64,000 nucleotides of DNA, taken from assembly GCA_963718295.1 (NCBI GenBank), contig CAVQYV010000011.1, positions 124,001 through 188,000 on the forward strand, in the 5' to 3' direction. Each line of letters starts with the position of its first letter. Position 1 is the first letter of the stretch. Below are positions 11,831-28,231 of this stretch, in pieces. The DNA is from CAVQYV01 sp963718295 [NCBI: uncultured Methylomirabilota bacterium]. GTDB taxonomy: Bacteria; Methylomirabilota; Methylomirabilia; CAVQYV01. The notes under the pieces are model-generated. The model was not told the origin of the DNA and did no database searches. It saw nothing but the letters and a program-made list of their open reading frames with translations. Position numbers and translations under genes: made by a program.

Positions 11831-12622
11831 TTGCCTATGGAATCAAATGATTTTAGAGACAGAGTTGCTCTGATCACGGGTAGCTCGCGGGGCATCGGAC
11901 AGGCCATTGCTCGCAGGTTTGCTCAAGCCGGTGCCGATGTGATTATCAATTACCGGCAAGTGGGCGGCCGATCTCAGGAACAAGCAGAGGCGTTGTGTGA
12001 AGAGATCCGGGAGATGGGGCGTCGGGCGTTCGTCATCCAGGCGGACATCTCGCTGAAAGCCTCTGTCAAAGAGATGTTCAACGAGGTCAGGGCCCAGCGG
12101 GGACGGCTCGATTTCCTGATCCTGAACGCCGCGAGGGCCCCCTTCAAACCCTTTGAAAAACTGTTTGAGCGGGAGTTACGGCAGCTCGTTGAGACGAACT
12201 ATTTGGGCAACATCTACTGTATTCAAGAAGCCCTTGCTCTCCTCGAGCAGCAGCGTGGGAAGATCGTCTTCATCTCGAGCCTCGGAAGCCGCTATTTCAA
12301 CCCGGAATACCCCCTGGGAAGCATGAAGGCTGCCATGGAGTCTGTGGTCAGGGATCTTTCGGAGAGCTTGAGCCCGAGAGGAATTCACGTCAATGCGGTG
12401 TGTGGAGGATTTGTAAAAACGGATTCCTTCAAAGTGCTGAGGCAGTATATGGAGGACCTCGAGAGCCTGCCGGAACGGTTTTTCGTCGAACCGGAGGCTA
12501 TCGCAGACGCTGTGCTTTTCCTCTGTCATCCAGCCAGCCGGGGAATCCAAGGACAGACCCTTGTGGTGGACCGGGGTCTCAGCAATACCCTTTATCGCCC
12601 CAGGCCCAAAAGGAGTGCATGA
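11831..12622 (+). CDS. FabL-like SDR enoyl-ACP reductase
   Basis: A 263-residue short-chain dehydrogenase. It has the NADPH motif TGSSRGIGQAIA and, in the second half, a run of features that resemble FabL of Bacillus: IVFISSLGS, then HVNAVCGGFVKTDS, then IQGQTLVVD. FabL reduces the enoyl-ACP double bond in each elongation cycle. The catalytic Tyr/Lys pair appears as Y160 and K166, a Y-x5-K spacing where FabL has Y-x6-K and FabG-type SDRs have Y-x3-K. The first codon may be TTG 11831 (better spaced from AAGAAGG) or ATG 11837. As the first gene of the cluster it suggests that the acyl chain is at least partly saturated. Confidence 0.75.
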   Translation: MPMESNDFRDRVALITGSSRGIGQAIARRFAQAGADVIINYRQVGGRSQEQAEALCEEIREMGRRAFVIQADISLKASVKEMFNEVRAQRGRLDFLILNAARAPFKPFEKLFERELRQLVETNYLGNIYCIQEALALLEQQRGKIVFISSLGSRYFNPEYPLGSMKAAMESVVRDLSESLSPRGIHVNAVCGGFVKTDSFKVLRQYMEDLESLPERFFVEPEAIADAVLFLCHPASRGIQGQTLVVDRGLSNTLYRPRPKRSA

Positions 12623-12711
12623 CCTCAAGGTGGCGAAGGATGAAAGAAATTCCATCGCTCGAGGCCCTGATTTCGCAATTCTCATATGACACTCGGGAGG
12701 AAGCGGCATGA
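12619..12711 (+). CDS. Possible 30-codon coupling peptide
   Basis: A short frame from ATG 12619 to TGA 12711. Its start overlaps the stop of the SDR gene (ATGA) and its stop overlaps the start of the ACP gene (ATGA). It reads MTSRWRRMKEIPSLEALISQ and then FSYDTREEAA. Another in-frame ATG at 12640 follows GAAGG. It resembles no family I know. It could be a translated spacer that carries ribosomes from the SDR to the ACP gene, or chance. Confidence 0.3.
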   Translation: MTSRWRRMKEIPSLEALISQFSYDTREEAA

Positions 12712-13274
12712 AACAGAATCTCATCTCTGAGGCAACGGTTATGGAGGAAGTGAAGAAAGCGATCGCTCAGACCCAGAAGATCGACCCGGAGACGATCCGG
12801 CCAGATCAATCACTCATGCAGGACCTGGGGGCGGAGTCCCTCGACTTTCTCGACATCAACTACCGCCTAGAGCAGGTTTTTGGCATCAAGACGGCGCGGC
12901 ATTTCGTCCTCGAGCATATTGAGGAAATGTTCGGGGAGGGGGTTGCAATCGATGAAAACGGCCAGCTCACTGATAAGGCCGTCGCCTTGCTGAAGATCAG
13001 ACTGGGCGAGGAGAACACAAAAGAGCTTCGGCCGGGCATAGACATGGATGAGATCAGCTCGCTCATCACCGTCCAAGGGATGGCGAGGGTTGTCCTGGAT
13101 ATCCTGGATACCCTTCCTGAGAAATGCAGTTCCGGGGGGCATTCGGCCTGGACGGTAGAAAACGGAACTCGGATCAAATGCGGTGAGTGCGGGGACTACG
13201 CCACGTTCACCGATGGCGACACGCTGACCCAGGAATGGCTGCGTGCCGTCCAAAACGAGAAGAAGATCTTTTAG
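12708..13274 (+). CDS. Long acyl carrier protein with C-terminal Cys/His motif
   Basis: A 188-residue protein, more than twice the normal ACP length. The N-terminal ~90 residues are a carrier domain; Ser44 in LGAESLDFLD is the expected phosphopantetheine site. The middle (95-135) is probably helical. The C-terminal ~50 residues contain C140, H145, C158 and C161 (CSSGGH and CGEC), which could form a small zinc site. Its neighbours are a FabL-like reductase and a ketosynthase, so it probably carries the growing chain of this cluster. The dedicated holo-ACP synthase at 18449 is the likely activating enzyme. The tail function is unknown. Confidence 0.85.
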   Translation: MKQNLISEATVMEEVKKAIAQTQKIDPETIRPDQSLMQDLGAESLDFLDINYRLEQVFGIKTARHFVLEHIEEMFGEGVAIDENGQLTDKAVALLKIRLGEENTKELRPGIDMDEISSLITVQGMARVVLDILDTLPEKCSSGGHSAWTVENGTRIKCGECGDYATFTDGDTLTQEWLRAVQNEKKIF

Positions 13275-13292
13275 AAAGGGACTGTTATTCCT

Positions 13293-14630
13293 TTGACGAG
13301 AGGTATGAAGCCAGACTCCTCAAAAGGTCGAGTCGTTGTTACCGGGTATGGGATGGTCACCCCCCTGGGAAAGAATGCTGAAGAGACGTTTGAACGTGCC
13401 TCCAGGGGGGAATCGGGGATCGATTACATCAGCACCTTCGATACGACCCATCTTCCATGCCAGATCGGTGGCCAGGTGAAGGAGGCGTGGCTCGAAGGCC
13501 CGGACCCTGAGGCGGAGCGATATTACAAATTCTCTTCCCGGGGTCTCAGGTTGATGCGCAAGGCCACCCTGGAAGCGGCAGAAAGGGCCCGTCTCGACGA
13601 GATCAGAGGGCGGGAGCGAATCGGGGTCTCTTTCGGGTTTCACGGCGACAGCCCCGCCGTCGAGGACATCGTATTCCTCCATCGCTTCTACGACGGCAAT
13701 GGGACCTGGAACATGGAGGGCCTCATGAGGGCGGGGGGATACTCACCCCTCAATTTCCTTAGGCGAAAACCGGACGTAGCCACCACGATCCTCCCCAAAC
13801 TGCTCCGGTGCAAAGGCCCGAATCTCACGATCGCCTCAGCGTGTGCCGCAGGCTCCCAGGCGATCGGAGAAGCCTACCGGCTCATCCAGCAGGGACGGGC
13901 AGATCTCATGATCGCGGGAGGCAGTGAGGCCGCATTGAATTTCATGGGTTTCATCGGCTTCGTGCTGATCAGGGCCCTTGCTCAAAGGTACAACACCCCT
14001 CAAGAGGCCTCGAGGCCTTTTGATCGCAAGAGGAACGGGTTTGTGATGTCTGAAGGAGCGGGGGCCGTCGTCCTGGAGGATCTGGAGCACGCAAGGGCGC
14101 GGGGAGCCATGATTTACGGAGAGATCTTGGGATACGGGGCATCTGCCGACGCTTACCGGATCACGGATACCCACCCGAGCGGCCTTGGAGCCGTACTCGC
14201 AGCGAAGGGCGCTCTGGAGGACGCCGGGCTTCATCCGGAGGACATCGAGTATATCAATGCCCACGGAACCTCCACCGCCCAGAATGACGTGACGGAAACC
14301 CGGGCAATCAAGGAGGTTTTTGGAGAAAGGGCCGAGCAGATCCCCATCAGCTCGAACAAGTCAATGCTGGGTCACACCATCGCTGCGGCAGGAACCATCG
14401 AGATGATCCTGACGATGATGGGGATCGATCGTTCCATCCTCCTTCCAACGATCAATTACGAGTTTCCCGATCCTAAGTGCGATCTGGATTACGTTCCTAA
14501 CCAGGCGAGAATCAAAGAGCACCGGGTCGCTCTCTCCAACTCCTTCGGCTTCGGAGGTCAAAATGCATGCCTCTGTCTGGGCAAGTTCGTCGAGGGTGAA
14601 GGAGATGGAGGATCCGAAAGGACGCCCTGA
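13293..14630 (+). CDS. Beta-ketoacyl-ACP synthase (FabF-like), catalytically complete
   Basis: A 445-residue thiolase-fold condensing enzyme of the KAS II/FabF type. The catalytic triad is intact: C184 in SACAAGSQ, H324 in NAHGTST and H361 in LGHTIAAAG. The C-terminal NSFGFGGQN is also conserved. The start is TTG 13293 or ATG 13305. It is followed 23 bp later by a KS-like gene lacking the Cys, the layout of a KS/chain-length-factor pair in type II polyketide and aryl-polyene systems. It would extend the chain on the long ACP by decarboxylative condensation with malonyl-ACP. Confidence 0.9.
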   Translation: MTRGMKPDSSKGRVVVTGYGMVTPLGKNAEETFERASRGESGIDYISTFDTTHLPCQIGGQVKEAWLEGPDPEAERYYKFSSRGLRLMRKATLEAAERARLDEIRGRERIGVSFGFHGDSPAVEDIVFLHRFYDGNGTWNMEGLMRAGGYSPLNFLRRKPDVATTILPKLLRCKGPNLTIASACAAGSQAIGEAYRLIQQGRADLMIAGGSEAALNFMGFIGFVLIRALAQRYNTPQEASRPFDRKRNGFVMSEGAGAVVLEDLEHARARGAMIYGEILGYGASADAYRITDTHPSGLGAVLAAKGALEDAGLHPEDIEYINAHGTSTAQNDVTETRAIKEVFGERAEQIPISSNKSMLGHTIAAAGTIEMILTMMGIDRSILLPTINYEFPDPKCDLDYVPNQARIKEHRVALSNSFGFGGQNACLCLGKFVEGEGDGGSERTP

Positions 14631-14653
14631 ATCGCTGATTCAAGGGACGTTTT

Positions 14654-15922
14654 ATGGAAACAGATCGACTTGTCATTACCGGAGCCGGCTTGATCTGCTC
14701 CCTGGGCGGAACGCCCCTGGAGGTTTGGGATGCCCTCACCTCTGGCAAGTCGGGGGTGAAACCCATCGAGGGATTTGATCCCAGCGGATTCCCATGCTCG
14801 TTTGCAGCTCAAGGGCCGAGCCTCGTCCCCAGCGACCTGGGCATCCACCCCAGAGATTCAAGGATCATGGATACGCCCGCCTACCTTCTCATGAAGTGCA
14901 CGCAGGATGCCTATCTCGCCGCCGGTCTCCTCGGGGCGTCGATCCCGAGGGAGGAGATCGGTTTTTTTGCGGCACTGGGAATGGTCGACTACGAAATCGA
15001 CGATCTGCTCCCTGCCGTGGTGAAGTCCCTGAATCCTTCTGGTCAGCTGGATTACCCCTCGTTCTATTCCCGAGGCTACAACGAGATCCATCCCTTATGG
15101 CCCCTTTCCATGTTGAACAACATCAGTTTCTGCCAGGTGGCTACCAGCCTTAACCTTCAGGGGGAGAATACCGTCTTCTCTCCTCATGCCGATTCGGGAG
15201 CGATGGCCGTAGCAGAAGGGATGAAGGCCGTTCTGGAGGAAAGGGCTCAGGTGGCCCTTTGTACCGGCGTAGCCGAGAAGATCAGCCCTTGCAGCCTGGC
15301 TAGGGCTCACCTCTCGGGCACGCTCAATCCGGCAGACCCCACCTGCAAGCCCTTCGATCGGGAGAGGAAGGGGACTCTGCTGGGGGAGGGCTGCGGCACG
15401 ATCGGACTCGAGCTTTACTCCTCTGCAAAGCAACGCGGCGCCGCATGTCTCGCCTCTTTAAGCGGGTACGGCTTTGCCTGCGAAAGGGGGGATGGTTTTT
15501 CGAACCCAACGCCGAGAGCCATTCGCCTGGGCATGGAAGAGGCCCTCGCCCGGGCCGGCGCGAGGCCCTCGGAGGTCGATCTTGTCATCGCTCACGGTGA
15601 GGGAAGCGTCGCTGCCGATCGAAACGAGATCGAGGCCCTCAATCAGTTGTTCTCAAGTGCCTTCGATGGAATTCACGTCTTTTCATCGAAAGGGGCTATT
15701 GGTCACCTGCTGGCCGGCGCGCCTCTGGCAGATCTCATCCTCGGGATCTCGATGGTGAGAGAGGGGTTCATTCCACGGACCCTCGGGACCTCGACGCCGG
15801 AACCGGACCTTCGGTTCCGCCTCGTCCACAAGGAGCCTGTGCGAAAGAAGTTGAGAAAGGTGTTGATCAACGCCCAGAGCTGTGAAGGCCAGGCCGCATC
15901 ACTCCTGTTGGAAGCCCTTTAG
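14654..15922 (+). CDS. KS-like chain-length-factor protein (no active-site Cys)
   Basis: A 422-residue protein with the full KAS fold. The nucleophile segment is NTVFSPHADSGAMA (residues 172-185): the position of Cys is taken by His or its neighbours. The two other residues remain (H314 in AHGEGS, H351 in IGHLLAGA). The family ending FGFGGQN is changed to SCEGQAAS. Loss of Cys with retention of the fold is what defines chain-length factors, which form heterodimers with an active KS and set chain length. The partner is probably the KS immediately upstream. Confidence 0.82.
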   Translation: METDRLVITGAGLICSLGGTPLEVWDALTSGKSGVKPIEGFDPSGFPCSFAAQGPSLVPSDLGIHPRDSRIMDTPAYLLMKCTQDAYLAAGLLGASIPREEIGFFAALGMVDYEIDDLLPAVVKSLNPSGQLDYPSFYSRGYNEIHPLWPLSMLNNISFCQVATSLNLQGENTVFSPHADSGAMAVAEGMKAVLEERAQVALCTGVAEKISPCSLARAHLSGTLNPADPTCKPFDRERKGTLLGEGCGTIGLELYSSAKQRGAACLASLSGYGFACERGDGFSNPTPRAIRLGMEEALARAGARPSEVDLVIAHGEGSVAADRNEIEALNQLFSSAFDGIHVFSSKGAIGHLLAGAPLADLILGISMVREGFIPRTLGTSTPEPDLRFRLVHKEPVRKKLRKVLINAQSCEGQAASLLLEAL

Positions 15923-15935
15923 AGCAGGGGAACAC

Positions 15936-16376
15936 ATGCGTTTTCTCTACTATGATGCCGTTACCCATCTGGAAAAGGGGAGATCGATCATCGGAGTGAA
16001 GACTTTCTCCCTTTCGGAGGAGTTTCTCCGGCGACACTATAAAAAGGTGGCCCTGGTGCCCGGGGTCATCCTGATCGAGGCCATGGCCCAGCTCCTGGGC
16101 TGGTTGATCATTTATTCCCATGACTTCCGCCTGTCGCCCATCATGGCCCTCGTGGAGGATGTCACTCTCCCACCCCGATTGAGGCCAGGGTTCAAGGCGG
16201 AGGTCCGCGGACAGATCCTTTCCACCTCGAAACGGGACTCCTTGGGGAAGGCACAGATCTACGTGGAGGACCTGTTGGTGGCGTCCCTCGAGCGTATCAT
16301 CTACAGCCACGTCGAGCAGGTGATCCCTGGAGATCTTGCCCAACTCTTCAGGTATTACAGCGGGCTCAGGCAGTGA
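15936..16376 (+). CDS. FabZ-like hot-dog dehydratase (first copy)
   Basis: A 146-residue single hot-dog protein related to FabZ/FabA 3-hydroxyacyl-ACP dehydratases. The helix region reads FLRRHYKKVALVPGVILIEA, followed by MAQLLGWLI. The His at the FabZ catalytic position is kept, but the usual HFPxxPVMPG is altered to HYKKVALVPG. The start is the ATG at 15936, preceded by GCAGGGGA; an open frame to 15882 overlaps the CLF gene. Its stop overlaps the next KS start (GTGA). It should remove water after ketoreduction, although the altered loop leaves a nonstandard role possible. Confidence 0.8.
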   Translation: MRFLYYDAVTHLEKGRSIIGVKTFSLSEEFLRRHYKKVALVPGVILIEAMAQLLGWLIIYSHDFRLSPIMALVEDVTLPPRLRPGFKAEVRGQILSTSKRDSLGKAQIYVEDLLVASLERIIYSHVEQVIPGDLAQLFRYYSGLRQ

Positions 16377-17662
16377 GGATGATGGAAGGAAGGAGAAGGG
16401 TGGTCGTCACAGGTCTGGGCATGGTCACCTGCCTCGGCCTCGACGTGGAGGAGAGCTGGCAGAAAGCCCTGCGGGGAACATCTGGAATCCATGGCATCAC
16501 TTATCCACAAAGCGATGCGTCTCCCCTTCACGCAGGCGGGGAGGTGAGCGCTTCGGATTGGCGAAAGATCGAAGCTGAATTCCCGGAAGAAGCGGAGACA
16601 GAGGGCGAGCGGAAAACACTCTTCGGCCTGTGGGCGGCCAAACGGGCGCTGGAGGATGCCGGACTTCTGGGCGGGATGGAACCACGGCCCCGGCACGGCG
16701 TGGTTTTGGCCTCTGGCATCGGTATCAATCGTCTCGAGGACATTCAGAAGTGGATGGATCGTGAGCGAAGGTTCGATACGCTTCGTTTCGGGAGAGAATG
16801 CTCCCAGGTTCACCCGGAGTCGATCATACGAAACCATTCAAACCGATCTGCGGCCCTCATCAGCCGCCGATTCGGGTTCCTGGGAATGAATGCGACCGTG
16901 ACCAGTGCCTGTGCCTCCGGGACGCAGGCGGTGGGGATCGGGTATCGTGCGATCCAGCGGCACGAAGCCGATGTGGTCGTTGTGGGAGGGGCGGATTCCA
17001 TGATCCACCCCGTCGGCCTCGTCTTCTTCGTTCTTCTCGGTGCAGCATGTACCTCCCGTGATCGACCGGAGACAGTCTGCAGGCCCTTCGACCGGAAGAG
17101 ATCCGGGCTGGTGATGGGAGAAGGAGCCGGGGTGGTTATCCTGGAGGAGGCGTCCCACGCCCTGGCACGGGGGGCGCGCATCTATGCAGAGGTGGCCGGC
17201 TACGGGGCCTCTCTCGATGCCTACCAGATGACGGCACCCCATCCCCAGGGGCGGGGAGCGGAACAGGCGATGAGGGCTGCCCTCAAGGATGCCGGTCTGG
17301 CGCCTGAAGGGATCGACTATGTCAACGCCCATGGCACCAGCACCAAGCTGAACGATCAGGTCGAAACAGCGACCCTCAAGAAGGTCTTTGGAGCCCATGC
17401 TCATCGATTGGCCATCAGTTCGACGAAGCCTTTGATCGGCCACCTCCTGGCAGCCTCGGGAGCTCCCGAGTTCATTTTCACTGTCCTGACGGTGGAACGA
17501 GATGAGATCCACCCTACGCTCAATCTCACCCATCCCGATCCAAAATGCGATCTGGATTATGTCCCCGGGGTGAAAAGGACCGGAATCGTTCGAGCGGCCC
17601 TATCCAATTCGTTCGGGTTCGGCGGTCAGAATGGATCGATCATCGTCAAGAAATATCCTTGA
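16373..17662 (+). CDS. Second catalytically complete ketosynthase
   Basis: A 429-residue FabF-like condensing enzyme. All active-site residues are present: C180 in TSACASGTQ, H320 in NAHGTSTK and H357 in IGHLLAASG, with NSFGFGGQN near the end. It starts with GTG 16373 overlapping the dehydratase stop; ATG 16379 or 16382 are alternatives. It is clearly a paralogue of the KS at 13293 but diverges enough to suggest a separate job, such as initiation or a different chain-length range. Its KS-like partner could be the Cys-less gene at 19561. Confidence 0.9.
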   Translation: MRMMEGRRRVVVTGLGMVTCLGLDVEESWQKALRGTSGIHGITYPQSDASPLHAGGEVSASDWRKIEAEFPEEAETEGERKTLFGLWAAKRALEDAGLLGGMEPRPRHGVVLASGIGINRLEDIQKWMDRERRFDTLRFGRECSQVHPESIIRNHSNRSAALISRRFGFLGMNATVTSACASGTQAVGIGYRAIQRHEADVVVVGGADSMIHPVGLVFFVLLGAACTSRDRPETVCRPFDRKRSGLVMGEGAGVVILEEASHALARGARIYAEVAGYGASLDAYQMTAPHPQGRGAEQAMRAALKDAGLAPEGIDYVNAHGTSTKLNDQVETATLKKVFGAHAHRLAISSTKPLIGHLLAASGAPEFIFTVLTVERDEIHPTLNLTHPDPKCDLDYVPGVKRTGIVRAALSNSFGFGGQNGSIIVKKYP

Positions 17663-17699
17663 GCGGGAAATGCGAATTCCGGATTCAGAATAGGAGATC

Positions 17700-18452
17700 A
17701 TGCAATTCGATTTGGATGGGAAGATTGCACTGGTGACAGGAGGAGCGAGGGGGATCGGACGGGAGACCTGCCTCCTCCTGGCTCAGGCCGGAGCCCAGGT
17801 CGTGATCAACTACAACCGATCCCGGGATCAGGCCGAGAGTCTCTTGGCAGAAATCGAGAAAGACGAGGGGAAAGCCGAGACCTTTCAGGCGGACATCTCA
17901 AAGCCGGAGCAGGTCGAAGCCCTCTTTGAGCGCGTGCGCACGAGGTTCAACCGGCTCGACATCCTGGTCAACAATGCTGGGATCATCAGGGACAATCTCC
18001 TGCTGAGCATGGAGCTCTCGGATTGGGACAAGGTCCTCGACGTGAATCTGGGAGGGGCGTTCCTCTGCACCCGGCGTGCCGCAGAGATGATGCTGACCCA
18101 GCATTCCGGCAAGATCATCAACATCGCCTCGACCGGCGCCATCAGGGGAGGACGGGGACAGACCAACTACGCCGCTTCGAAGGGCGGGCTTGTTTCGTTC
18201 ACCCGGGCCTGTGCCGTGGAGCTGGGGGGCAAGGGAATCCAGGTGAACGCGGTCCTTCCCGGACTGATCGTCACCGAGATGAGCAGCCGGGCACGAAAGA
18301 GGGCCGGGGAGGAGATCCTGGAGAAGATCCCCTGCGCGCGGTTCGGTGAGGCAAAGGACGTGGCCCATCTCATCCTCTTTCTCGCTTCCAATCTGTCGGA
18401 CTACATCACCGGTCAGGCCATCCCCGTGGATGGAGGCTTGAGCGTGTCATGA
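17700..18452 (+). CDS. fabG: 3-oxoacyl-ACP reductase (FabG-like SDR)
   Basis: A 250-residue classical SDR that reduces 3-ketoacyl-ACP with NADPH. It carries TGGARGIGRETC (cofactor loop), LVNNAGIIRDNLL, the catalytic Ser in IASTGAIRGG, and Y-x3-K in NYAASKGGLV. The PGLIVTEM segment and the VDGGLSVS end are also standard. Its stop overlaps the acpS start by 4 nt. It supplies the ketoreduction step of the cluster. Confidence 0.9.
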   Translation: MQFDLDGKIALVTGGARGIGRETCLLLAQAGAQVVINYNRSRDQAESLLAEIEKDEGKAETFQADISKPEQVEALFERVRTRFNRLDILVNNAGIIRDNLLLSMELSDWDKVLDVNLGGAFLCTRRAAEMMLTQHSGKIINIASTGAIRGGRGQTNYAASKGGLVSFTRACAVELGGKGIQVNAVLPGLIVTEMSSRARKRAGEEILEKIPCARFGEAKDVAHLILFLASNLSDYITGQAIPVDGGLSVS

Positions 18453-18847
18453 TCAGAATTCACCAAGGCGTGGACCTTGTGGAGATTTCCAAATTTGAGG
18501 AGGTCGTCAAGAGGAACCCGTGTTTCCTTCTCGACCTGTTCACGGAACAAGAGCGGACATACTGTCAATCTTTGAAGGACCCCATCCTTCACTTTGCGGG
18601 CCGTTTTGCGGCCAAGGAGGCATGTGCGAAGGCTCTGGGAACAGGATTCTCGAGCTCGGGGATCGATCATCTGTTTCAGGAGATGGAGGTGGTCTCGAGA
18701 CCGTCTGGAAAACCGGAGATTTCTTTGAGCGGCTGGGCGGAGAGGATTGCCAAGAAGAAGAATATCAATCAGGCGAGCGTCTCGATCTCCCATACCTCCA
18801 GGTATGCGGTAGCGTCTGTGATTCTTCTGGAAAATGGATCGGAATGA
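18449..18847 (+). CDS. acpS: Holo-ACP synthase (AcpS-type phosphopantetheinyl transferase)
   Basis: A 132-residue AcpS-family enzyme that transfers 4'-phosphopantetheine from CoA to the ACP serine. Key motifs are GVDLVEISKF (Mg-binding Asp), FAGRFAAKEACAKALGTG (catalytic Glu and Lys) and SISHTSRYA. A dedicated PPTase inside the cluster suggests that its long ACP is not efficiently served by the housekeeping enzyme. The following 266 bp to the next gene hold no convincing gene. Confidence 0.92.
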   Translation: MIRIHQGVDLVEISKFEEVVKRNPCFLLDLFTEQERTYCQSLKDPILHFAGRFAAKEACAKALGTGFSSSGIDHLFQEMEVVSRPSGKPEISLSGWAERIAKKKNINQASVSISHTSRYAVASVILLENGSE

Positions 18848-19113
18848 GTCCCGAGAATCTTGGCTGAAGCCCCTCAAGGCCTCATGGAAAGGCAGTAGGG
18901 TGCACTTTCGATTTCCGGTCCTCCGGTCCAGCATTCCCAACTGCGTTTTGATTCGCTATCTCGTACGCCGGCCAATTCAGAAAATGTCCAGCTCAGGAGT
19001 GAGAGGTCAGAAGGAAAAGCCGATCCCCGCTTCTGACTTTTCGATTCAAGGCATGAGTGATTTTTACCCAGAGAGATTGCAGGGCAGGATTTCATGCCGG
19101 GAGATGATGCTGC

Positions 19114-19560
19114 ATGCGGTACCTACTTATTGACAGAATCAGCGAATGGAAGGCCAACGAACGGATCGCTGGCGTCAAGAATGTGGCCATGAGCGAGGAT
19201 TTTCTCGAATTCCACTTTCCCAAGAACCCGGTCATGCCTGGGGTCCTGTTGATCGAGGCTTTTTCTCAGCTCGCAGGATGGCTCGAGGCGGCCTCCTCGG
19301 AATTCAAAAACTGGTTCCTGATCACCAAGGTTCGCCAGTGCAAGTTTTATGGGTTTGCCCTCCCTGGGGATCAGGTGGAGCTTGAACTGGAGCGATTCCC
19401 TGGAGAAGGGCCTGAGAGACGAGCCTATTCTGGGACCGGGAAGGTGGGAGCAAAGAGGAGGATTAGTCTGGAGTTCGAGGGAGACGTGATCGATCTCGGA
19501 GAGATCGAGGACGTGGAAGAGCAGAAACGGTTTTTCGAGATGCTCACGCGAGGTCAGTGA
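19114..19560 (+). CDS. FabZ-like hot-dog dehydratase (second copy)
   Basis: A 148-residue hot-dog protein. Unlike the first copy it keeps the FabZ active-site loop almost exactly: FHFPKNPVMPGVLLIEAFSQ. The beta strands ITKVRQCKFYGFALPGDQVE match the FabZ core. The ATG at 19114 has GGGAG ~10 bp upstream. The next gene starts directly after its stop. It is the better candidate for the true dehydratase of the cluster. Confidence 0.85.
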   Translation: MRYLLIDRISEWKANERIAGVKNVAMSEDFLEFHFPKNPVMPGVLLIEAFSQLAGWLEAASSEFKNWFLITKVRQCKFYGFALPGDQVELELERFPGEGPERRAYSGTGKVGAKRRISLEFEGDVIDLGEIEDVEEQKRFFEMLTRGQ

Positions 19561-20856
19561 ATGGTCTCCATAAAGAGAGAGGTTGTCATCACAGGGTTGG
19601 GCTTGGCCACGCCCCTTGGTGTCGGGGTAGAAGAGAATTGGGAGGGTGTGAAGGGGTCCAGGACAGGGATCGGGCACTACCCCGTGCCTGGAGTGCCCCG
19701 GTTCTTATGCTATTTGGGGAAGGTGAAGGAGATAGAACCCGAGAGGGATGTTCCTCCAAAGCTCTTGGGTCAGATGAAATTCCTGAACCGAGGATCCCTC
19801 CTCGGGTACCTAGCCGCCCGGGAAGCGATCTGCGATGCGAAGATGGATCTCACGGAGATCTCCCCGGCGAGACGGGCCCTCTATATTGCTTCCGGCGACA
19901 CGACGAGGGTAGGTTATGATTTCATGTACCCCGCTGTAAAAGAGGGGACCCACGGCAAATGGCAGGGAATAGACAGAGAGACGTTAAACCAATCTACGGT
20001 GGGTAAGGTGAACCCTTTCTTCCTGCTGGAGTCCATCTGCAACAACCTCTTCAGCTTTCTTTCCGCCTGCTACGAATTCATGGGGACGAACACGACGCTG
20101 GCCAGCCACTCTCCGCACGGAGGGAATGCTTTAGAGCTTGCATCGAGGAGCATACAGCACGGCCAAGCCGACATCGCCCTTGCTGTGGGATGCGGCAACT
20201 GGATCACCGAGATCCCCCGTTACGAAATGGAGGGATTGCGGGTCCTGTCGTGCTGCAGAGAAGGGGCCCAGTCTTATCGGCCTTTTGACCGGAGGAGGGA
20301 CGGGTTCATCCCGGGAGAGGGAGGAGCGGCCGTCCTGGTGGAGGCGACCGAGGTTGCCGAAAAGCGCGGGGCGAGGATCCTTGGTAAAATTAGAGGATTT
20401 GGCAACAGCATCGAATTCTCGAACGATCAAACCCTCACGGTTCCCCCCCGCGTGACGAGCCAGTGTATGAGATCGGTCCTGGAGGATGCAGCCATTGATC
20501 TCCGAGACCTTTCCTTTCTTTGCCCCCATGGGAGCGGTTCCAAGAAAGGGGATAGATCAGAATTGGCCTCGATTCGGGATCTGTGTGAGGAAAGGGGCAG
20601 CGATATTCCCATTACAGGATTGAAGGCCTACACAGGCCACCTTGGGGCGGCCAGCGACCTTGCGGAGGTGATCTTCTGTCTGCGTTCGGTGAGAGAGGGT
20701 ATGATTCCCGCAACACTCCATTTCCGGGAGGCCGATCGGGAATTCAGAGGCCTCCGCATTTCCGGCAAACACGAGCCTTGTGAGCGAGGCCCCTTCCTCT
20801 CCCTGAGCTATGGCATCGGAGGACAATCCTCAGCCGTGGTTGTCGAGGTGCCTTAG
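19561..20856 (+). CDS. Second KS-like protein without active-site Cys (CLF-like)
   Basis: A 431-residue KAS-fold protein. The nucleophile region is TLASHSPHGGNALELA (residues 179-194), with no Cys at the catalytic position. CPHGSGSK and TGHLGAASD keep the two His residues. The C-terminal SLSYGIGGQSS follows the family pattern. It starts at the base after the dehydratase stop. Sequence divergence from the first CLF-like protein suggests a separate heterodimer, most simply with the KS at 16373. Confidence 0.8.
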   Translation: MVSIKREVVITGLGLATPLGVGVEENWEGVKGSRTGIGHYPVPGVPRFLCYLGKVKEIEPERDVPPKLLGQMKFLNRGSLLGYLAAREAICDAKMDLTEISPARRALYIASGDTTRVGYDFMYPAVKEGTHGKWQGIDRETLNQSTVGKVNPFFLLESICNNLFSFLSACYEFMGTNTTLASHSPHGGNALELASRSIQHGQADIALAVGCGNWITEIPRYEMEGLRVLSCCREGAQSYRPFDRRRDGFIPGEGGAAVLVEATEVAEKRGARILGKIRGFGNSIEFSNDQTLTVPPRVTSQCMRSVLEDAAIDLRDLSFLCPHGSGSKKGDRSELASIRDLCEERGSDIPITGLKAYTGHLGAASDLAEVIFCLRSVREGMIPATLHFREADREFRGLRISGKHEPCERGPFLSLSYGIGGQSSAVVVEVP

Positions 20857-20890
20857 TGCTCCCTTTCAATATCCCGGTTAGGTATCAGGG

Positions 20891-21892
20891 ATGGATCGGG
20901 CGCACGCCATGGAGCAGCGTTCGGCAGAAATGATGAAGCCTTCCACACGAAAGCGGAGAAAGAAGGGAAAGTTCCTGCAGCTTCTGGAGTATGGGGTGGC
21001 CGCTACGGTCGTACGTGTGGTAAAGGCAATCCCCCACCCAATCATCTATCGCCTCAGTCACATCATGGGAGAGATCCTATACCTCATCGTTCCCCGGCGG
21101 CGAGCCATTGCCCTCGAAAACCTTCGCAACGCCCTCGGACCAGAGAGGACGGAGAAGGAAATCACTTCCCTTGCCCGTCGGAGCTGGCAGTCCTTTTGCC
21201 TCACTTGCTTTGATATGATCAAGTTTCACGGTGACTTCACGGCTCAAGATGCTCGTGAGCGGTTAAGAAAAGTTGCTTCCGAGGAGATCGAGATCCTCTT
21301 CCGCAAGGCCAGAAGGATCCATGAGGAGTCCGGGGGCTGCATCTTCGTGACCCCCCACCTTGGAAATTGGGAGTTTCTGCCCCATGTGAGCGCGGTCGCA
21401 GGAATTCCGCTGGTCGTGGTGGCGCGACCTCTCGATAACGTCTATCTGGAGAGATTCATCTACCAGAGCCGCACGGATACGGGCCAGATCATCATCCCCA
21501 AGAAGAATGCCCTCATGACACTTCACAAAACCCTCCGACAAGGCAAATCCATCGGTCTCCTTCCCGACCAGGGCATCAAAGAGGGGATCCCGGTTGACTT
21601 CTTTGGCCGGAAGGCTCTGACCACCCCGGTCCCTGCGCTCCTCTCGGTCACCTTCAAACGGCCCATCGTGCTGGTCGCGTGCTGCCGCAAGGCTCAGGGA
21701 AAAGGATACGAAGGTTTCGTCTCCGACCCCCTATGGCCCGGCACCTACCAAAGCGAAAAGGAAGAGATCTTCCGCTTGACCCGAGAGATGAACAAAACGA
21801 TGGAAGAAATCATCCTTAGATATCCCGACCAGTATTGCTGGATTCACAACCGATGGAAGACCTATCGAAGAAGAAAGGATCTCTTCGGATGA
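20891..21892 (+). CDS. LpxL/HtrB-family lysophospholipid acyltransferase
   Basis: A 333-residue membrane-associated acyltransferase of the lipid A biosynthesis (LpxL/HtrB) superfamily. After a basic N-terminus there is a weakly hydrophobic segment (about 40-75). The catalytic motif appears as VTPHLGNWEFLP (H-x4-E form), followed by VVARPLDNVYLERF and LLPDQGIKEG. Members move acyl chains from ACP to lipid acceptors. Similar genes occur in aryl-polyene and related lipid clusters, so it probably transfers the cluster product to a glycerol or sugar lipid. Confidence 0.85.
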   Translation: MDRAHAMEQRSAEMMKPSTRKRRKKGKFLQLLEYGVAATVVRVVKAIPHPIIYRLSHIMGEILYLIVPRRRAIALENLRNALGPERTEKEITSLARRSWQSFCLTCFDMIKFHGDFTAQDARERLRKVASEEIEILFRKARRIHEESGGCIFVTPHLGNWEFLPHVSAVAGIPLVVVARPLDNVYLERFIYQSRTDTGQIIIPKKNALMTLHKTLRQGKSIGLLPDQGIKEGIPVDFFGRKALTTPVPALLSVTFKRPIVLVACCRKAQGKGYEGFVSDPLWPGTYQSEKEEIFRLTREMNKTMEEIILRYPDQYCWIHNRWKTYRRRKDLFG

Positions 21893-21969
21893 GAGGCCGG
21901 GAAGGGACCACCCGGTCATAGGATTGAGGCTTGGTTCCGCCTTTCAAAAAGGCAAGGGAGCCGAGGGCC

Positions 21970-23256
21970 GTGATTGGAAAACTGAACATCTTTCAGAGGA
22001 CTGTGCATCTTTGGAATGGCATGCACGCCTATAACGCGGTGCATGTCGTCAGGATAGATCGCCCGCTGGACGAGTCTCGACTGCGCGAGGTCATACATGA
22101 TGAACTGATGCGCTTGGGATTGACCGGCCTTGTGCTCGACAAGAGGAAAGGGACCTTCGAATACCAGGGTGGGCCACCCCAGATCGACCTCAAGTTGATT
22201 CAGGGGGGTGCGACCCCACGGGAGATTTTGCGTGATGAGGTTCAGTTCCAGATCAACACGTCTTTTGTCGACAACGGAGCAGTCAACCCCTTCAGGTTCT
22301 TCCTGATCCGAGAGGAAAAGGGTTTCTACTTTGGCCTCGTCTATTTCCACGTCGTGGCCGGTGCGGAATCGATCATCCTGCTCCTGAAGCACCTGGTGGA
22401 AACGTATCTCGGCCAACTCACCCTCGGTTTCTCCATTCCCTTGGATCTTTATCCAGGCGGCTACGGGAGACTGACACCCCACTATTTCAGCCTGCTCCTT
22501 CGCAGCATCCTCCACTTCCCATTGCTCCTAGCGGAATTGCGAAAATCATCCAGACCCCGCCATCGCGATGATCGAAACCAGCGAAATGACGTTGTACTCT
22601 TTTCCCTGACGCCGGATCAGCTCCGAAAGCTTCAAGAGAGGGGGAAGCGTTGGGAGGTTACCCTGAACGACTTGTTCCTTGCCCTTCTTCTGAAGGCCCT
22701 CAATCCTTTGGCCTCGAGGCGACTCAGGGGGAAACGGCGCGGGCAGATCAGTGTAGGATCCATTGTCAACATTCGGAAGGACCTCGGGATCGACAGCCTG
22801 AGGACCTTCGGCCTCTTCCTGGGGTCTTTTCTTGTGTCCCTTGGTGTTCGGGAAGGGTGCTCGGTAGAAGATCTGGCGAAGGAGGTTCGTCAACGGACCC
22901 TCCGGGTCAAACGGGAGCGGCTCTATCTCGGGACTCCCTTTGAGCTGTGGATGGGAAGATTCGCCATGTCCCTCCTGGCATCGGATCGGCGGCATACGTT
23001 CTATGTCAAGAATTATCCGTTGTGGGGAGGAATCAGCAACGTGAATCTCGATCTCCTCTGGGAGACGAAGGGCGAGAGAGGACGGATCGACTACCTCAGG
23101 GCCGTTTCCACAGGTCCGATCACACCTCTGGTCCTTTCGGTCACAACGGTGGGGGACCTTGTCAATGTGGGCCTCACATTCAGGCAGACCGTTTTCTCCC
23201 CTGGGGAGATCGATCAATTCGTTTCTGAATTCAGGGATGCCATCGTTCAGCTCTAA
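21970..23256 (+). CDS. Condensation-fold acyltransferase (WS/DGAT or PapA-like)
   Basis: A 428-residue protein that I assign to the chloramphenicol-acetyltransferase-like superfamily from the pattern of its central and C-terminal halves (LTPDQLRKLQERGKRWEVTL; GSIVNIRKDLGID; the FRQTVFSPGEIDQF end). The expected HHxxxDG motif is degenerate: YFHVVAGAES keeps one His but has Gly for Asp. The GTG at 21970 has AGGGAG 8 bp upstream and is preferred to TTG 21931. If active it would esterify an acyl chain to an alcohol; the changed motif makes another role or a binding function possible. Confidence 0.6.
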   Translation: MIGKLNIFQRTVHLWNGMHAYNAVHVVRIDRPLDESRLREVIHDELMRLGLTGLVLDKRKGTFEYQGGPPQIDLKLIQGGATPREILRDEVQFQINTSFVDNGAVNPFRFFLIREEKGFYFGLVYFHVVAGAESIILLLKHLVETYLGQLTLGFSIPLDLYPGGYGRLTPHYFSLLLRSILHFPLLLAELRKSSRPRHRDDRNQRNDVVLFSLTPDQLRKLQERGKRWEVTLNDLFLALLLKALNPLASRRLRGKRRGQISVGSIVNIRKDLGIDSLRTFGLFLGSFLVSLGVREGCSVEDLAKEVRQRTLRVKRERLYLGTPFELWMGRFAMSLLASDRRHTFYVKNYPLWGGISNVNLDLLWETKGERGRIDYLRAVSTGPITPLVLSVTTVGDLVNVGLTFRQTVFSPGEIDQFVSEFRDAIVQL

Positions 23257-23268
23257 GTAGGTAAGGTC

Positions 23269-24336
23269 ATGGAAAGAAAAGCTCGTTCCATTGTCATCAT
23301 CCTCTGTCTGCTGGCTTGGCTTTCGGGCTGTGCGACCACAGCATATCACTATAGCGAGCCGAGCTACCAAGCACCTCCAAGGCCCGGAAGCGCCCTGGAG
23401 CGGGTTTCTCTGGACCCGACACTCGAAGAGAGGATTCTGGCCCTCAATCCGGAACGTGTCACCGGCCGCGATGTGGGGGAGATCTTGTCCCGAGCACCTG
23501 CGCCGCGAATCATCAATATCCACGGAGGGAGATACCCGGTCTATCGGGCGATGATTTCCTTTTCGAAGTTCCTGATCGGCATGGGCTACCCGGAAGACAG
23601 GATCCGAAACCCTGGGGATGGGTCTTATTCGTTCAGCTGTTATGCCAGCAGCGAAAAGATTGCCGGGGCGATCGCCTGGTACTACGAAAGAGAAGGGTTG
23701 CGGCCTATGATGGTGGGACACAGCCAGGGGGGGATGCAGGCCGTGAAAGTCCTTTACCAACTCGATGGAGCCTTTGGCGACGAAGTTCGCGTGTGGAACC
23801 CTCTTACCCAGGAGACAGAGGAACGAACGTCGATTCTCGATCCCATCACAGGAGTGCAAAGGCCCATAGTCGGGATGGGGGTTTCTTATGTGACCTCCGT
23901 GGGGGCGGGTGGCCTCACCCGCCTGCTCCCCAACCAATGGATCATGACAGGAAGGTTGAGAAGCATTCCAGACACGGCTGTGGAGTTCACGGGCTTCATC
24001 ATCCCCATGGATCTTCTCGGAGGAGATCTCCTGGGGTTCGGATCTGCCAACCAATACGTTGGCAATGGAAAGGCAAAGGTGAGGAATGTCCGATTGCCTC
24101 TTGGATACAATCATGGCAAGGTTCCCGTAACCGCCCACCTCGTCGAGAGCCAAGAGATCAAGGATTGGATCAACGATTACGTCCCCGACGGCGAACCGGA
24201 ACTGGACGTCGATTTGAAAGGGAACACCCGTCATATCCTCTGGGCCGCGGATGTCTGGTGCAGTGTGAAGAAGCATTGGGTTCTCGAGCTGCAGCATCTC
24301 ATTATGGCCAAGCGAAAGATGACCTATGCCAGATGA
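23269..24336 (+). CDS. Lipoprotein with alpha/beta-hydrolase fold
   Basis: A 355-residue protein with a lipoprotein signal peptide: basic start MERKAR, hydrophobic VIILCLLAWL and lipobox LSGC with Cys21. The mature part has VGHSQGGMQA, a nucleophile elbow of the esterase/lipase type (Ser in GHSQG). Later segments SVGAGGLTRLLPNQW and LGYNHGKVPVTAHLV could carry the His. It would be anchored to a membrane facing the periplasm. Aryl-polyene-like clusters often encode lipoproteins for handling the product, so a lipid-trimming or transfer role is plausible. The last 11 bp overlap the next gene. Confidence 0.78.
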   Translation: MERKARSIVIILCLLAWLSGCATTAYHYSEPSYQAPPRPGSALERVSLDPTLEERILALNPERVTGRDVGEILSRAPAPRIINIHGGRYPVYRAMISFSKFLIGMGYPEDRIRNPGDGSYSFSCYASSEKIAGAIAWYYEREGLRPMMVGHSQGGMQAVKVLYQLDGAFGDEVRVWNPLTQETEERTSILDPITGVQRPIVGMGVSYVTSVGAGGLTRLLPNQWIMTGRLRSIPDTAVEFTGFIIPMDLLGGDLLGFGSANQYVGNGKAKVRNVRLPLGYNHGKVPVTAHLVESQEIKDWINDYVPDGEPELDVDLKGNTRHILWAADVWCSVKKHWVLELQHLIMAKRKMTYAR

Positions 24337-24938
24337 TGCCATCTGGCTGCGAAAGGCGATCGTCGTTGGATCGGCCCTGGTCTATTGGGGAGGGGTTTTG
24401 GTTCAAACCTATCGCATTCGGAGAAGGATTGGCCGATCCCCCAACGTCAAGCCCCATGGCCTGAAAGAAAGGTTGCTCTGGTTGGGGTGGATGGTGGTGG
24501 TATTAGGATGGATCGGACAACCGTCACTCATCGGCAGACCAGACATCCCTTTGGTTTCCCTTATGCCTTTCCTGCTGCACGAGCAAGGCATGTTTCTTGG
24601 CTCCCTCCTGCTGGTGGGGGGATACGCAGGCACGCTGTGGTGCTATGTCGCCCTGGGCGATGCCTGGCGTCTGGGAATCCGGCGGCGCGAGAGAACGGTG
24701 CTCATCAGGACCGGCCCCTATCGTTTCGTGAGACATCCGATCTATCTCTTTCAATGCGTGATGTTGCTGGGGGCGGCTACTTGTATTGCCCACACTTTTC
24801 TCGTTCCTGATGCTGGGCCTGCAACTGTTTTGCGTCTTCATCAAGGCCATGGATGAGGAAGCCTACCTGATGCAGATCCACGGGTCGGAATACGCGGAAT
24901 ACCTGCGCCGCACCGGAAGATTCCTCCCCAGCATATAG
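24326..24938 (+). pseudogene. Isoprenylcysteine-methyltransferase-like membrane protein, frameshifted
   Basis: Two frames together encode one ICMT-family protein of ~204 residues. The first frame (24326 to about 24797) has several hydrophobic segments and the family core RTGPYRFVRHPIYL. The family C-terminus (KAMDEEAYLMQIHGSEYAEY, then LRRTGRFLP) is in the +1 frame and ends with TAG at 24936-24938. Removing one base from the T4 run at about 24795-24798 would restore the reading frame. It is either a real inactivating 1-base insertion or an assembly error. Such enzymes methylate carboxylates or act on membrane lipids. It is the last gene of the cluster. Confidence 0.8.
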
Positions 24939-25091: not shown

Positions 25092-25178
25092 TGGTGCCGA
25101 AGAGGGGACTCGAACCCCTACGGTCTTAAGACCACATGGCCCTGAACCATGCGCGTCTACCAGTTCCGCCACTTCGGC
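25092..25178 (-). tRNA. tRNA-Leu (anticodon CAG)
   Basis: An 87-nt class II tRNA on the minus strand with a long variable arm and encoded CCA. The acceptor stem GCCGAAG pairs with CTTCGGC. The anticodon stem CATGG/CCATG encloses TTCAGGG, giving CAG for CTG codons. Its 3' end points toward the FAS/PKS cluster, which is the geometry of a tRNA used as an integration site, though no integrase gene is present. Confidence 0.95.
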
Positions 25179-27066: not shown

Positions 27067-28104
27067 ATGAAAGCAGCTGTCTTCTATGCCCCGGGAGATA
27101 TGAGGTTAACGGATCTGGAGCCACCCGGTATCTCGGCTGGGGAGGTCCTGATCCAGGTTAAGGCTTGTGCAGTGTGTGGAACGGATATCAGGGTCTTCGA
27201 GGGCAAGAAGACCAAGGGGATCTTTCCGCCGGCGGTGATAGGACATGAGATCTCCGGAGAGATAGCGGAAAAGGGCGAGGGAGTTGAAGGCTACGATCTG
27301 GGAGACCGGGTGGCGGTCATCCCCGTGATTTCCTGCCGCAATTGCTACTATTGTCTGAATGGTATGGAAAATATCTGTGCCACCCGCACGGCTTTCGGGT
27401 ATGAGTATGGAGGAGGATTCCAGGAATATATGCGGGTGCCTGAGGTGGCGGTGAAAGCAGGGAATGTAGTTAAGATCGGCCGATCGATTTCCTTCGAGGA
27501 AGCCTCCTTGGTGGAGCCGCTCGCTTGCTGCCTGAATGGGAACCAGCGCTGCCGTATTCGACCCGGGGATACGGTCTTGATCGTCGGTGCCGGTCCGATT
27601 GGACTGATGCATGTTCAACTGGCAAGAATGTCCGGGGCTGGCCGGATTTTGGTCAGTGAACTGATTCCCGAGCGCCGGGATCTGGCCGTTCTGATGGGTG
27701 CCGACAAGGTATTCGATCCACAGATCCGTAACTTGGTCGACGCGGCCCTGGAGGAAACAAATGGCCTGGGAGTTGATTCAGCCATCATGGCCATCGGACT
27801 TACTCAAATCGTCAACGACTTGATCAAGGCAACCAGGAAAGGCGGCATCGTAAACCTGTTCGCAGGGTTTACTGCTCAAGGGGATTCCCAGATCCAGGCG
27901 AACCTTTTGCATTACAACGAGATCTACCTCACAGGGACGGCCTCTGCTTCCCGTTCTCATTTCCACAGTGCCCTGTCTCTCGCGTTGGAAAAACGAATCG
28001 ATGTGTCTCCCCTCATTTCCCATCGATTTCCTTTATCAGAGATCGACCGCGCCTTTTGGGTGACCAAGAGCGGAGAAGGGCTGAAAGTAGTCGTTACCCC
28101 GTAG
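27067..28104 (+). CDS. Zinc-dependent polyol/sugar dehydrogenase 1
   Basis: A 345-residue medium-chain dehydrogenase like sorbitol or threonine dehydrogenase. The catalytic zinc ligands appear as CAVCGTD and GHEISGEI. The structural zinc site is CRNCYYCLNGMENIC. The Rossmann motif is VGAGPIGLMHV. It should oxidise a secondary alcohol of a sugar or polyol with NAD. It begins a six-gene operon that contains a second, homologous dehydrogenase. A Shine-Dalgarno GACGGAG is present. Confidence 0.86.
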   Translation: MKAAVFYAPGDMRLTDLEPPGISAGEVLIQVKACAVCGTDIRVFEGKKTKGIFPPAVIGHEISGEIAEKGEGVEGYDLGDRVAVIPVISCRNCYYCLNGMENICATRTAFGYEYGGGFQEYMRVPEVAVKAGNVVKIGRSISFEEASLVEPLACCLNGNQRCRIRPGDTVLIVGAGPIGLMHVQLARMSGAGRILVSELIPERRDLAVLMGADKVFDPQIRNLVDAALEETNGLGVDSAIMAIGLTQIVNDLIKATRKGGIVNLFAGFTAQGDSQIQANLLHYNEIYLTGTASASRSHFHSALSLALEKRIDVSPLISHRFPLSEIDRAFWVTKSGEGLKVVVTP

Positions 28105-28231
28105 TGAACTTTCGCCAAATCGTGCGTCTTGGGTCCAGTTGGGGATGTAAGAAGAAGAGGGCACCTCTGCATGCCTTTTGCACTCCGATTATGGATCATG
28201 GAAATACTACAAATAAAGGGGAGGCCTCTTC

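What the first reader, a model, noticed from the sequence alone, without database searches (positions are those of the whole stretch)
11831..24938. Self-contained type II FAS/PKS-like cluster of unknown product
Seen: fourteen recognised genes on one strand (plus a possible mini-ORF) encode a FabL-like reductase, a long ACP, two KS and two Cys-less KS-like proteins, two dehydratases, FabG, AcpS, an LpxL-type acyltransferase, a condensation-fold acyltransferase, a lipoprotein hydrolase and an ICMT-like protein. Known: aryl-polyene and ladderane clusters share KS/CLF, dehydratase, KR, ACP and acyltransferase genes. Differences: no ammonia lyase, acyl-AMP ligase, thioesterase or desaturase, and an enoyl reductase is present. 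Inference: it makes a partly reduced long acyl chain that is placed on a lipid or exported. I know of no described system with this exact gene set.
Basis: partly seen in the sequence, partly recalled or inferred. Interest (0 to 1): 0.82.

Follow-up and report, generated by a model that had tools for sequence, protein, structure and literature searches.

The report
Dedicated fatty-acid factory for lipid A
A block of about fourteen genes looks like a private fatty-acid assembly line, found in several largely uncultivated bacterial groups, whose product is most likely attached to lipid A, the anchor of the outer membrane; it resembles a system known from root-nodule bacteria but has twice as many of some parts.

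Summary
The 14 genes at 11831-24938 are real; the last (ICMT-like) is frameshifted relative to a relative. Eleven (SDR, ACP, KS1, CLF1, DH1, KS2, KR, AcpS, DH2, CLF2, LpxL) form a conserved core: 49 homologous loci, by record title Nitrospirota, Desulfobacterota, Acidobacteriota, Nitrospinota and Tectomicrobia; whichever core genes a locus holds are collinear in 47 of 49. COND, hydrolase and ICMT are rare accessories.

Evidence points to lipid A. The ACP's best solved-structure match is AcpXL-type. The acyltransferase is an LpxL homologue, sister to rhizobial LpxXL in two trees (89/89, 91/94), and the only full-length one in 19 of 25 cluster genomes; all 25 match LpxK. In 245 genomes, 14 of 15 with CLF2 have cluster-type LpxL, 3 of 230 without. 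Lipid A genes lie near 14 of 78 distinct loci, 0 of 30 controls.

It works like the rhizobial VLCFA cluster, whose FabF2XL also lacks the Cys, but is not a member: family cut-offs fail and KS clades separate. Chain structure is unknown.

The parts
11831..12622 (+). SDR1, FabL-like short-chain reductase (putative enoyl-ACP or second ketoacyl-ACP reductase)
   Evidence: Best NCBIfam FabL 214 bits, cut-off 328 not met; best PDB FabL 3oic 4.8e-41; present in 24 of 49 loci
12708..13274 (+). AcpXL-like acyl carrier protein with about 110-aa C-terminal extension, Cys-rich in most relatives
   Evidence: Best PDB match specialized ACP 2kw2; best NCBIfam NF005079, 44 bits, cut-off 83 not met; 24 of 49 loci; CX1-3C..CXXC in 18 of 25 sequences
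13293..14630 (+). KS1, ketosynthase with Cys-His-His
   Evidence: one clade in tree
14654..15922 (+). CLF1, KS-like partner without the Cys
15882..16376 (+). DH1, FabA/FabZ-like dehydratase
   Evidence: Pfam PF07977
16373..17662 (+). KS2, ketosynthase with Cys-His-His
17700..18452 (+). KR, FabG-like ketoacyl-ACP reductase
18449..18847 (+). AcpS-like phosphopantetheinyl transferase
   Evidence: Pfam PF01648
19114..19560 (+). DH2, FabZ-like dehydratase
19561..20856 (+). CLF2, KS-like partner with Ser at the Cys position
   Evidence: alignment A2
20891..21892 (+). LpxL-type acyltransferase, proposed to move the finished chain from ACP to lipid A
   Evidence: PF03279 1.5e-44; HLGNWE motif or variant in 37 of 37 aligned sequences; trees
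21931..23256 (+). COND, condensation-fold acyltransferase-like protein (accessory)
   Evidence: Pfam 1.3e-10; model pLDDT 78.9 and best Foldseek matches condensation domains, E down to 4.7e-23; 5 of 49 loci
23269..24336 (+). HYD, lipoprotein with GHSQGG serine-hydrolase motif (accessory)
   Evidence: sequence; GHSQGG invariant in 7 aligned sequences from the window and four loci; no Pfam family and no credible PDB match; poor model, not used
24326..24938 (+). ICMT-like membrane methyltransferase (accessory), frame broken near its C-terminus
   Evidence: PF04140; two frames needed

Best explanation
A dedicated type II fatty-acid synthase makes a special long acyl chain on its own AcpXL-like carrier protein, and the LpxL-type acyltransferase at its end transfers that chain to lipid A. 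Steps: AcpS charges the ACP (inferred from family). KS1 and KS2, probably each as a heterodimer with a Cys-less partner (CLF1, CLF2) that sets chain length, condense malonyl units onto an acyl starter from the housekeeping pool (inferred; no starter gene is present). KR, DH1/DH2 and the FabL-like SDR reduce each round (families shown, reactions inferred). The chain, probably longer than ordinary membrane fatty acids and at least partly saturated (inferred by analogy), stays on the ACP, and LpxL esterifies it onto Kdo2-lipid IVA (inferred from homology, co-occurrence and gene neighbourhood). COND, HYD and ICMT, present in few relatives, would further acylate, trim or methylate the lipid (guess).
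For: Synteny: 49 loci, core genes collinear in 47. ACP: best PDB match is specialized ACP AcpXL, 5.5e-8 against 8.7e-6 for the best ordinary ACP; 48% over 50 aa to S. meliloti AcpXL. LpxL: of 25 cluster genomes 24 have PF03279, each including the cluster-type protein; it is the only match in 15 and the only full-length one in 4 more. These genomes make lipid A: LpxK match 25 of 25, LpxC 22 of 25. Cluster-type LpxL co-occurs even where unlinked: 14 of 15 CLF2-positive against 3 of 230 CLF2-negative of 245 genomes (Fisher 5e-19; genomes not independent). Trees: all 19 rows labelled cluster-linked form one clade (100/99) with 8 of 10 further rows from cluster genomes and 0 of 20 rows from cluster-negative genomes; LpxXL is its sister at 89/89 and, pruned, 91/94. 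Lipid A genes lie near 14 of 78 distinct cluster loci, 0 of 30 controls. The rhizobial cluster has the same plan, including a Cys-less FabF2XL.
Against: No product is known. No lpx gene was recognised beside the cluster in the window. The 10 loci with lpxB-waaA and the 4 with lpxA come from related genomes (nearly all titled Nitrospirota), so they are not independent. Two of 13 further cluster genomes (G265, G539) show no cluster-type LpxL, one of 25 (G008) no PF03279 at all, five of 25 have a second full-length LpxL, and three genomes have cluster-type LpxL without CLF2. Most genomes are drafts of untold completeness, so 'only copy' may reflect gaps. PF03279 also holds acyltransferases with other acceptors. 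LpxXL sisterhood is below the starred level. KS1 groups with ApeO of the aryl polyene system (95/93), on a very long branch. Nothing tested fixes chain length or saturation.
Confidence: 0.66

Rival explanations
1. An aryl-polyene-like or other polyene system: the KS/CLF, KR and DH set makes a conjugated, unreduced chain attached to an outer-membrane lipid by the LpxL-type enzyme.
For: Same classes of core enzyme as ApeC/O/R, ApeI/P and ApeQ; KS1 joins ApeO at 95/93; a lipoprotein and a methyltransferase are present, as in APE clusters.
Against: No acyl-AMP ligase, thioesterase, LolA or MMPL transporter among the 14 genes; ACP nearer AcpXL than ApeF, and no ApeE hit; the FabL-like reductase is in the same 24 loci as the ACP; ApeO sits on a branch of 2.8 changes per column, so its place is unsure.
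Confidence: 0.14
2. The chain is long and special, but its acceptor is another envelope molecule (phospholipid, glycolipid, lipoprotein or, through COND, a hydroxylated or amino compound), with LpxL serving as that acceptor's acyltransferase.
For: PF03279 relatives include PIM acyltransferases; accessory COND and lipoprotein hydrolase in the window; in L128 the neighbours read like heptose and amino-sugar genes.
Against: In 19 of 25 genomes, all with LpxK, no other full-length LpxL is seen; lipid A gene neighbours.
Confidence: 0.14
3. A second general fatty-acid synthase or a redundant copy of housekeeping genes, with no special product.
For: Every core enzyme belongs to a family that also has housekeeping members.
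Against: KS1, KS2, CLF1 and CLF2 are four separate clades shared by several phyla; two Cys-less paralogues are kept; dedicated ACP and AcpS; a separate FabZ-like gene beside lpxA in L205, L207 and L209.
Confidence: 0.06

Closest known systems
Rhizobial VLCFA / lipid A cluster acpXL-fabZXL-fabF2XL-fabF1XL-adhXL-lpxXL (S. meliloti copy fetched as L184; PMC11901934 and PMC5613085, passages read)
   Same: Dedicated ACP of the AcpXL type, KS plus a Cys-less KS-like partner, dehydratase, reductase, and a terminal LpxL-type acyltransferase; one strand; LpxXL is the sister group of the cluster LpxL among the rows sampled
   Different: Two KS and two Cys-less partners, two dehydratases, own KR, SDR and AcpS; ACP twice as long; KS and CLF clades separate from FabF1XL/FabF2XL; NCBI equivalog cut-offs not met; different phyla
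Aryl polyene (APE) cluster, E. coli CFT073 (L112; PMC8253772, passages read)
   Same: Two KS plus CLF, two DH, KR, ACP, acyltransferase, lipoprotein, methyltransferase
   Different: No ligase, thioesterase, LolA or MMPL gene; SDR1, AcpS, an LpxL-type enzyme and a second CLF present; ACP nearer AcpXL
'D2' multi-KS clusters of Desulfobacterota found here (L136-L140)
   Same: One or two Cys-less and two or three Cys KS, ACP, KR, DH, AcpS in most; closest sampled relatives of KS2 and CLF2
   Different: No LpxL hit; an acyl-ACP-reductase-like gene (seen in L136, L137, L139) and epimerase-type SDRs instead (families read by eye)
Ladderane clusters of anammox bacteria (recalled, not fetched)
   Same: Multiple FabF-like genes, ACP, FabZ, FabG
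   Different: No radical SAM or desaturase gene here

Membership tests
Rhizobial AcpXL-LpxXL VLCFA system | ACP of the AcpXL equivalog (NF005079, which S. meliloti AcpXL meets at 189.5 bits) | tested here: not met
   44 bits, cut-off 83; yet it is the best family hit
Rhizobial AcpXL-LpxXL VLCFA system | KS pair FabF1XL (NF005076) and FabF2XL (NF005084) | tested here: not met
   KS1 331 and KS2 311 bits, cut-off 629; CLF2 53 and CLF1 20.5 bits, cut-off 320; separate clades
Rhizobial AcpXL-LpxXL VLCFA system | Catalytic KS paired with a Cys-less KS-like protein | tested here: met
   CLF1, CLF2 and three FabF2XL all lack the Cys
Rhizobial AcpXL-LpxXL VLCFA system | Terminal LpxXL (NF005120) acyltransferase | tested here: not met
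   130.6 bits, cut-off 273, second-best family; sister clade at 89/89 and 91/94
Rhizobial AcpXL-LpxXL VLCFA system | Very-long-chain, (omega-1)-hydroxylated acyl group on lipid A | not testable with these tools
   needs lipid chemistry
Aryl polyene clusters | Aryl starter activation (acyl-ACP synthetase, ApeH) | tested here: not met
   none among the 14 genes
Aryl polyene clusters | KS, CLF, KR and two DH | tested here: met
Aryl polyene clusters | Thioesterase, LolA-like and MMPL export genes | tested here: not met
   none among the 14 genes
Lipid A late acyltransferases (PF03279) | PF03279 match with HX4(D/E) motif (motif recalled) | tested here: met
   152.8 bits, cut-off 22.3; HLGNWE or variant in 37 of 37 aligned sequences
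FabL enoyl-ACP reductase | FabL equivalog score and Tyr-x6-Lys | tested here: not met
   214 bits, cut-off 328; Tyr-x5-Lys in 25 of 25
Ladderane clusters | Radical SAM and desaturase genes (recalled) | tested here: not met
   none among the 14 genes

The most novel reading that the evidence does not exclude
A second, independently assembled kind of lipid A-specific type II synthase, spread over at least four phyla by record title, uses two different KS/Cys-less-partner heterodimers to build one chain on an ACP that bears a zinc-ribbon-like tail, and in many of these bacteria it supplies the only late acyl chain of lipid A. Together with the D2 clusters it belongs to a large, undescribed family of 'double-CLF' synthases that swap their off-loading enzyme (LpxL here, an acyl-ACP reductase there).
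Probability: 0.35. Interest if true: 0.8.

Novelty: new variant of a known kind. Interest (0 to 1): 0.62.

Why it matters
Very-long-chain lipid A is known from rhizobia and, per PMC5613085 (passages), also from Brucella and Legionella, and is tied to outer-membrane stability. If this cluster does the same job with different, doubled parts in Nitrospirota, Desulfobacterota, Acidobacteriota and Nitrospinota, dedicated lipid A acyl factories arose more than once, a feature of the outer membrane of these largely uncultivated groups can be predicted from sequence, and the role of paired catalytic and non-catalytic ketosynthases in setting chain length becomes testable. It would also give a name to loci that genome miners might file under aryl polyene or ladderane (my guess; antiSMASH was not run).

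Tried and rejected
CLF1 as query in genome contigs found no relative (44 pattern matches, none confirmed), probably because the chosen peptides were not conserved; KS2 worked. KS1 and KS2 in viral contigs: nothing. KS1 in plasmids: 1298 records, all below 60% identity; most of the 40 listed are annotated fabF. The HYD structure was too poor to search (pLDDT 53), and its PDB sequence hits were antibody light chains or diabodies at E 0.08 or worse, chance. The host phylum could not be told from citramalate synthase: best identities 64-65% in both the Desulfobacterota and the Nitrospirota sample, 198 genomes each. Considered and dropped: ladderane (no radical SAM or desaturase), classical aromatic type II PKS (no cyclase or aromatase among the 14 genes), simple FAS duplication (four separate paralogue clades). 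A long antisense ORF (22546-24342, 598 aa, minus) overlaps COND and HYD and was taken as spurious without a test.

Literature: nine searches showed no description of this cluster in titles or abstract starts. The library holds open-licence papers only. Passages read of PMC8253772, PMC11901934 and PMC5613085; all others only as listings.

Rows dropped or relabelled: from the 80 loci, L049 and L051-L080 were left out of the 49 (41-48% to KS2, except L063 at 55%, which is a fragmentary second copy in the genome of L004 and the same contig as L142). One search counted 79 cluster loci and 31 controls; L135 repeats L040 and L063 repeats L142, leaving 78 and 30; merging near-identical relatives gives 70 cluster stretches, still 14 with lipid A genes. 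Row L106, labelled unlinked, is identical to the LpxL of L015, which lies in its cluster, and L105 lies at a contig end; that leaves six clearly unlinked rows in the clade. L178 was too short for the LpxL tree; 18 rows were dropped on purpose for the second tree. In some searches only the best 5-9 candidates of each genome were scored, and the draws include genomes already known to have the cluster. The score limits (470 bits for CLF2, 350 for LpxL) were set after seeing the gaps.
Full report
Observation. The fourteen genes are present as described, tightly packed on one strand between a 2-oxoacid oxidoreductase gene (9697-11409) and a tRNA-Leu gene (25092-25178, minus). KS1 and KS2 keep Cys-His-His; both KS-like partners lack the Cys. 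The last gene is frameshifted relative to its relative in L007.

Conservation. A scan of the genome collection with KS2 gave 447 confirmed relatives, of which the best 80 were kept; 49 of these (53-67% identity) stand apart from 30 others at 41-48%. One further hit, L063 at 55%, is a fragmentary second copy in the genome of L004 and was not counted. The 49 carry the same neighbours: KS2 49, DH2 44, DH1 42, CLF1 41, CLF2 41, KR 39, LpxL 36, AcpS 35, KS1 25, SDR1 24, ACP 24 of 49; nine loci show all eleven. Order and strand agree in 47 of 49; the two exceptions (L036, L042) are swaps of overlapping open frames of neighbouring genes. Many loci end at contig edges. Of 41 loci with CLF2, 36 have LpxL; of the other five, three (L014, L025, L042) stop soon after CLF2. 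COND is seen in 5, HYD in 4 and ICMT in 3 of 49 loci, so they are accessories. Of 17 cluster genomes searched for KS1, 16 have it at 61-71% identity, each time as SDR1-ACP-KS1. In 14 of these 16 the trio is bounded by unrelated genes, so the cluster is really split; in G249 it continues into CLF1-DH1-KS2 and only the contig breaks, and in G002 it ends at a contig edge. G008 has no such match, although its locus L010 holds a KS1 stretch. In phylum samples CLF2 scores above 470 bits in 15 of 245 genomes (phylum of G003, Nitrospirota by title) and 3 of 345 (phylum of G025, Desulfobacterota), and other matches score below 270, so the system is patchy.

Four separate paralogues. In a 78-row tree KS1, KS2, CLF1 and CLF2 are each one clade (99-100 / 97-100), across Nitrospirota, Thermodesulfobacteriota and Acidobacteriota. 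They do not join rhizobial FabF1XL or FabF2XL. KS2 and CLF2 are nearest to genes of another set of clusters ('D2') in Desulfobacterota (98/88 and 95/87). Against my reading, KS1 joins ApeO of the aryl polyene system at 95/93, but ApeO's branch is 2.8 changes per column, which the program marks as unsure.

Why lipid A. First, the ACP: of 77 PDB sequences matched, the two best are 'specialized acyl carrier protein' entries; NCBIfam NF005079, which S. meliloti AcpXL meets at 189.5 bits, is also its best family, below cut-off. Second, the acyltransferase: PF03279 was sought in 25 cluster genomes. 24 have it, and in each the cluster-type protein is among the matches; in 15 it is the only match, in 4 more the only full-length one; 5 genomes (G005, G010, G015, G022, G023) have a further full-length one; G008 has none. 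LpxK matches 25 of 25 and LpxC 22 of 25, so these cells make lipid A. These are mostly draft genomes of untold completeness. Third, co-occurrence: of 13 further cluster genomes, 11 have a cluster-type LpxL, 6 of them (G108, G087, G124, G158, G174, G259) away from CLF2; in G108, a single 3.27-Mb contig, the two lie 1.7 Mb apart. G265 and G539 lack it. In one draw of 245 genomes, 14 have both CLF2 and cluster-type LpxL, 1 only CLF2, 3 only LpxL, 227 neither. The three have only a 44-46% match to KS2. Relatedness inflates the P value. Fourth, the trees: all 19 rows labelled linked and 8 of 10 labelled unlinked form one clade (100/99); one of the 8 (L106) proved to be the copy in L015, one (L105) lies at a contig end, six are clearly unlinked. 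None of 20 rows from 19 cluster-negative genomes and none of 5 other LpxL of cluster genomes falls inside. The sister group is LpxXL, which attaches the very long chain in rhizobia (89/89; 91/94 after removing long branches and duplicates). Fifth, neighbours: lpxB and waaA (with lpxK in 8) lie downstream on the same strand in 10 loci, within about 4 kb of LpxL, and lpxA-lpxI-gnnA-gnnB lie upstream of the split-off SDR1-ACP-KS1 in 4, with one opposite gene between; together 14 of 78 distinct loci against 0 of 30 controls. L046 has a diverged lpxB piece below the threshold. The names lpxB, waaA, lpxK, lpxA, lpxI, gnnA and gnnB for these neighbours rest on reading the sequences and recall, not on a family search; LpxK as a family was tested genome-wide.

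Comparison with the rhizobial cluster. The S. meliloti region has ACP, FabZ, two KS, a dehydrogenase and LpxXL. Its FabF2XL and those of Shinella and Methylobacterium have Glu where the Cys should be, so the pairing of a catalytic with a non-catalytic KS is shared. In Methylobacterium a FabG-like gene lies in the cluster too (tblastn with ApeQ). The published role of that cluster is to make 26-34 carbon acyl chains and attach them to lipid A (PMC11901934, PMC5613085, passages). The window cluster fails the equivalog cut-offs for AcpXL, FabF1XL, FabF2XL and LpxXL, so it is a working analogue, not a member.

What is shown and what is inferred. Shown: gene content, synteny, missing Cys, clades, co-occurrence, neighbourhood. 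Inferred: heterodimers, chain length, reduction level, the lipid A acceptor, and any role of COND, HYD and ICMT. COND has a condensation fold with an invariant His, but Gly in place of the Asp of the HHxxxDG motif in five of six aligned sequences (motif recalled).

Verdict. A real, conserved and apparently undescribed synthase, most likely for a special lipid A acyl chain: a new variant of a known kind. Confidence 0.66, interest 0.62.

Noticed in passing
L136-L140 (G580, G475, G540, G300, G337); L141 (G451) similar but not examined closely: A second family of multi-KS clusters in Desulfobacterota with one or two Cys-less KS, two or three Cys KS, ACP, KR, DH, epimerase-type SDRs and, in L136, L137 and L139, an acyl-ACP-reductase-like protein (365-417 aa), but no LpxL hit; sisters of KS2 and CLF2. 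Perhaps a long-chain aldehyde or hydrocarbon route; families read by eye.
   Followed up: partly
window 12708-13274, residues about 105-188: The ACP carries a C-terminal extension with, in 18 of 25 sequences, a CX1-3C..CXXC pattern like a small zinc ribbon, unusual for an acyl carrier protein.
   Followed up: partly
window 11831-12622: SDR1 has Tyr-x5-Lys in 25 of 25 sequences, between the FabG (x3) and FabL (x6) spacings (spacings recalled).
   Followed up: partly
window 24326-24938: The ICMT-like gene needs two frames to match its relative in L007 over full length: pseudogene or sequence error.
   Followed up: partly
L027, L028, L029, L050 and partly L030, downstream of LpxL on the minus strand: Conserved genes (about 206, 925 and 465-480 aa; the 206-aa one not called in L030) that read in L027 like an MlaC-type protein, an RND/MMPL transporter and a TolC-type protein (families read by eye); could be an export system or chance neighbours.
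   Followed up: no
L128, after CLF2 (L127 has genes of like size): The KR-AcpS-DH2-CLF2 half is followed by genes that read like heptose-phosphate guanylyltransferase, heptose kinase and a DegT-type aminotransferase.
   Followed up: no
window 27067-33848: Two zinc alcohol dehydrogenase-like genes (345 and 353 aa; the second read by eye) and two FGGY kinase genes (523 and 515 aa) alternate, a possible sugar or polyol pathway.
   Followed up: no
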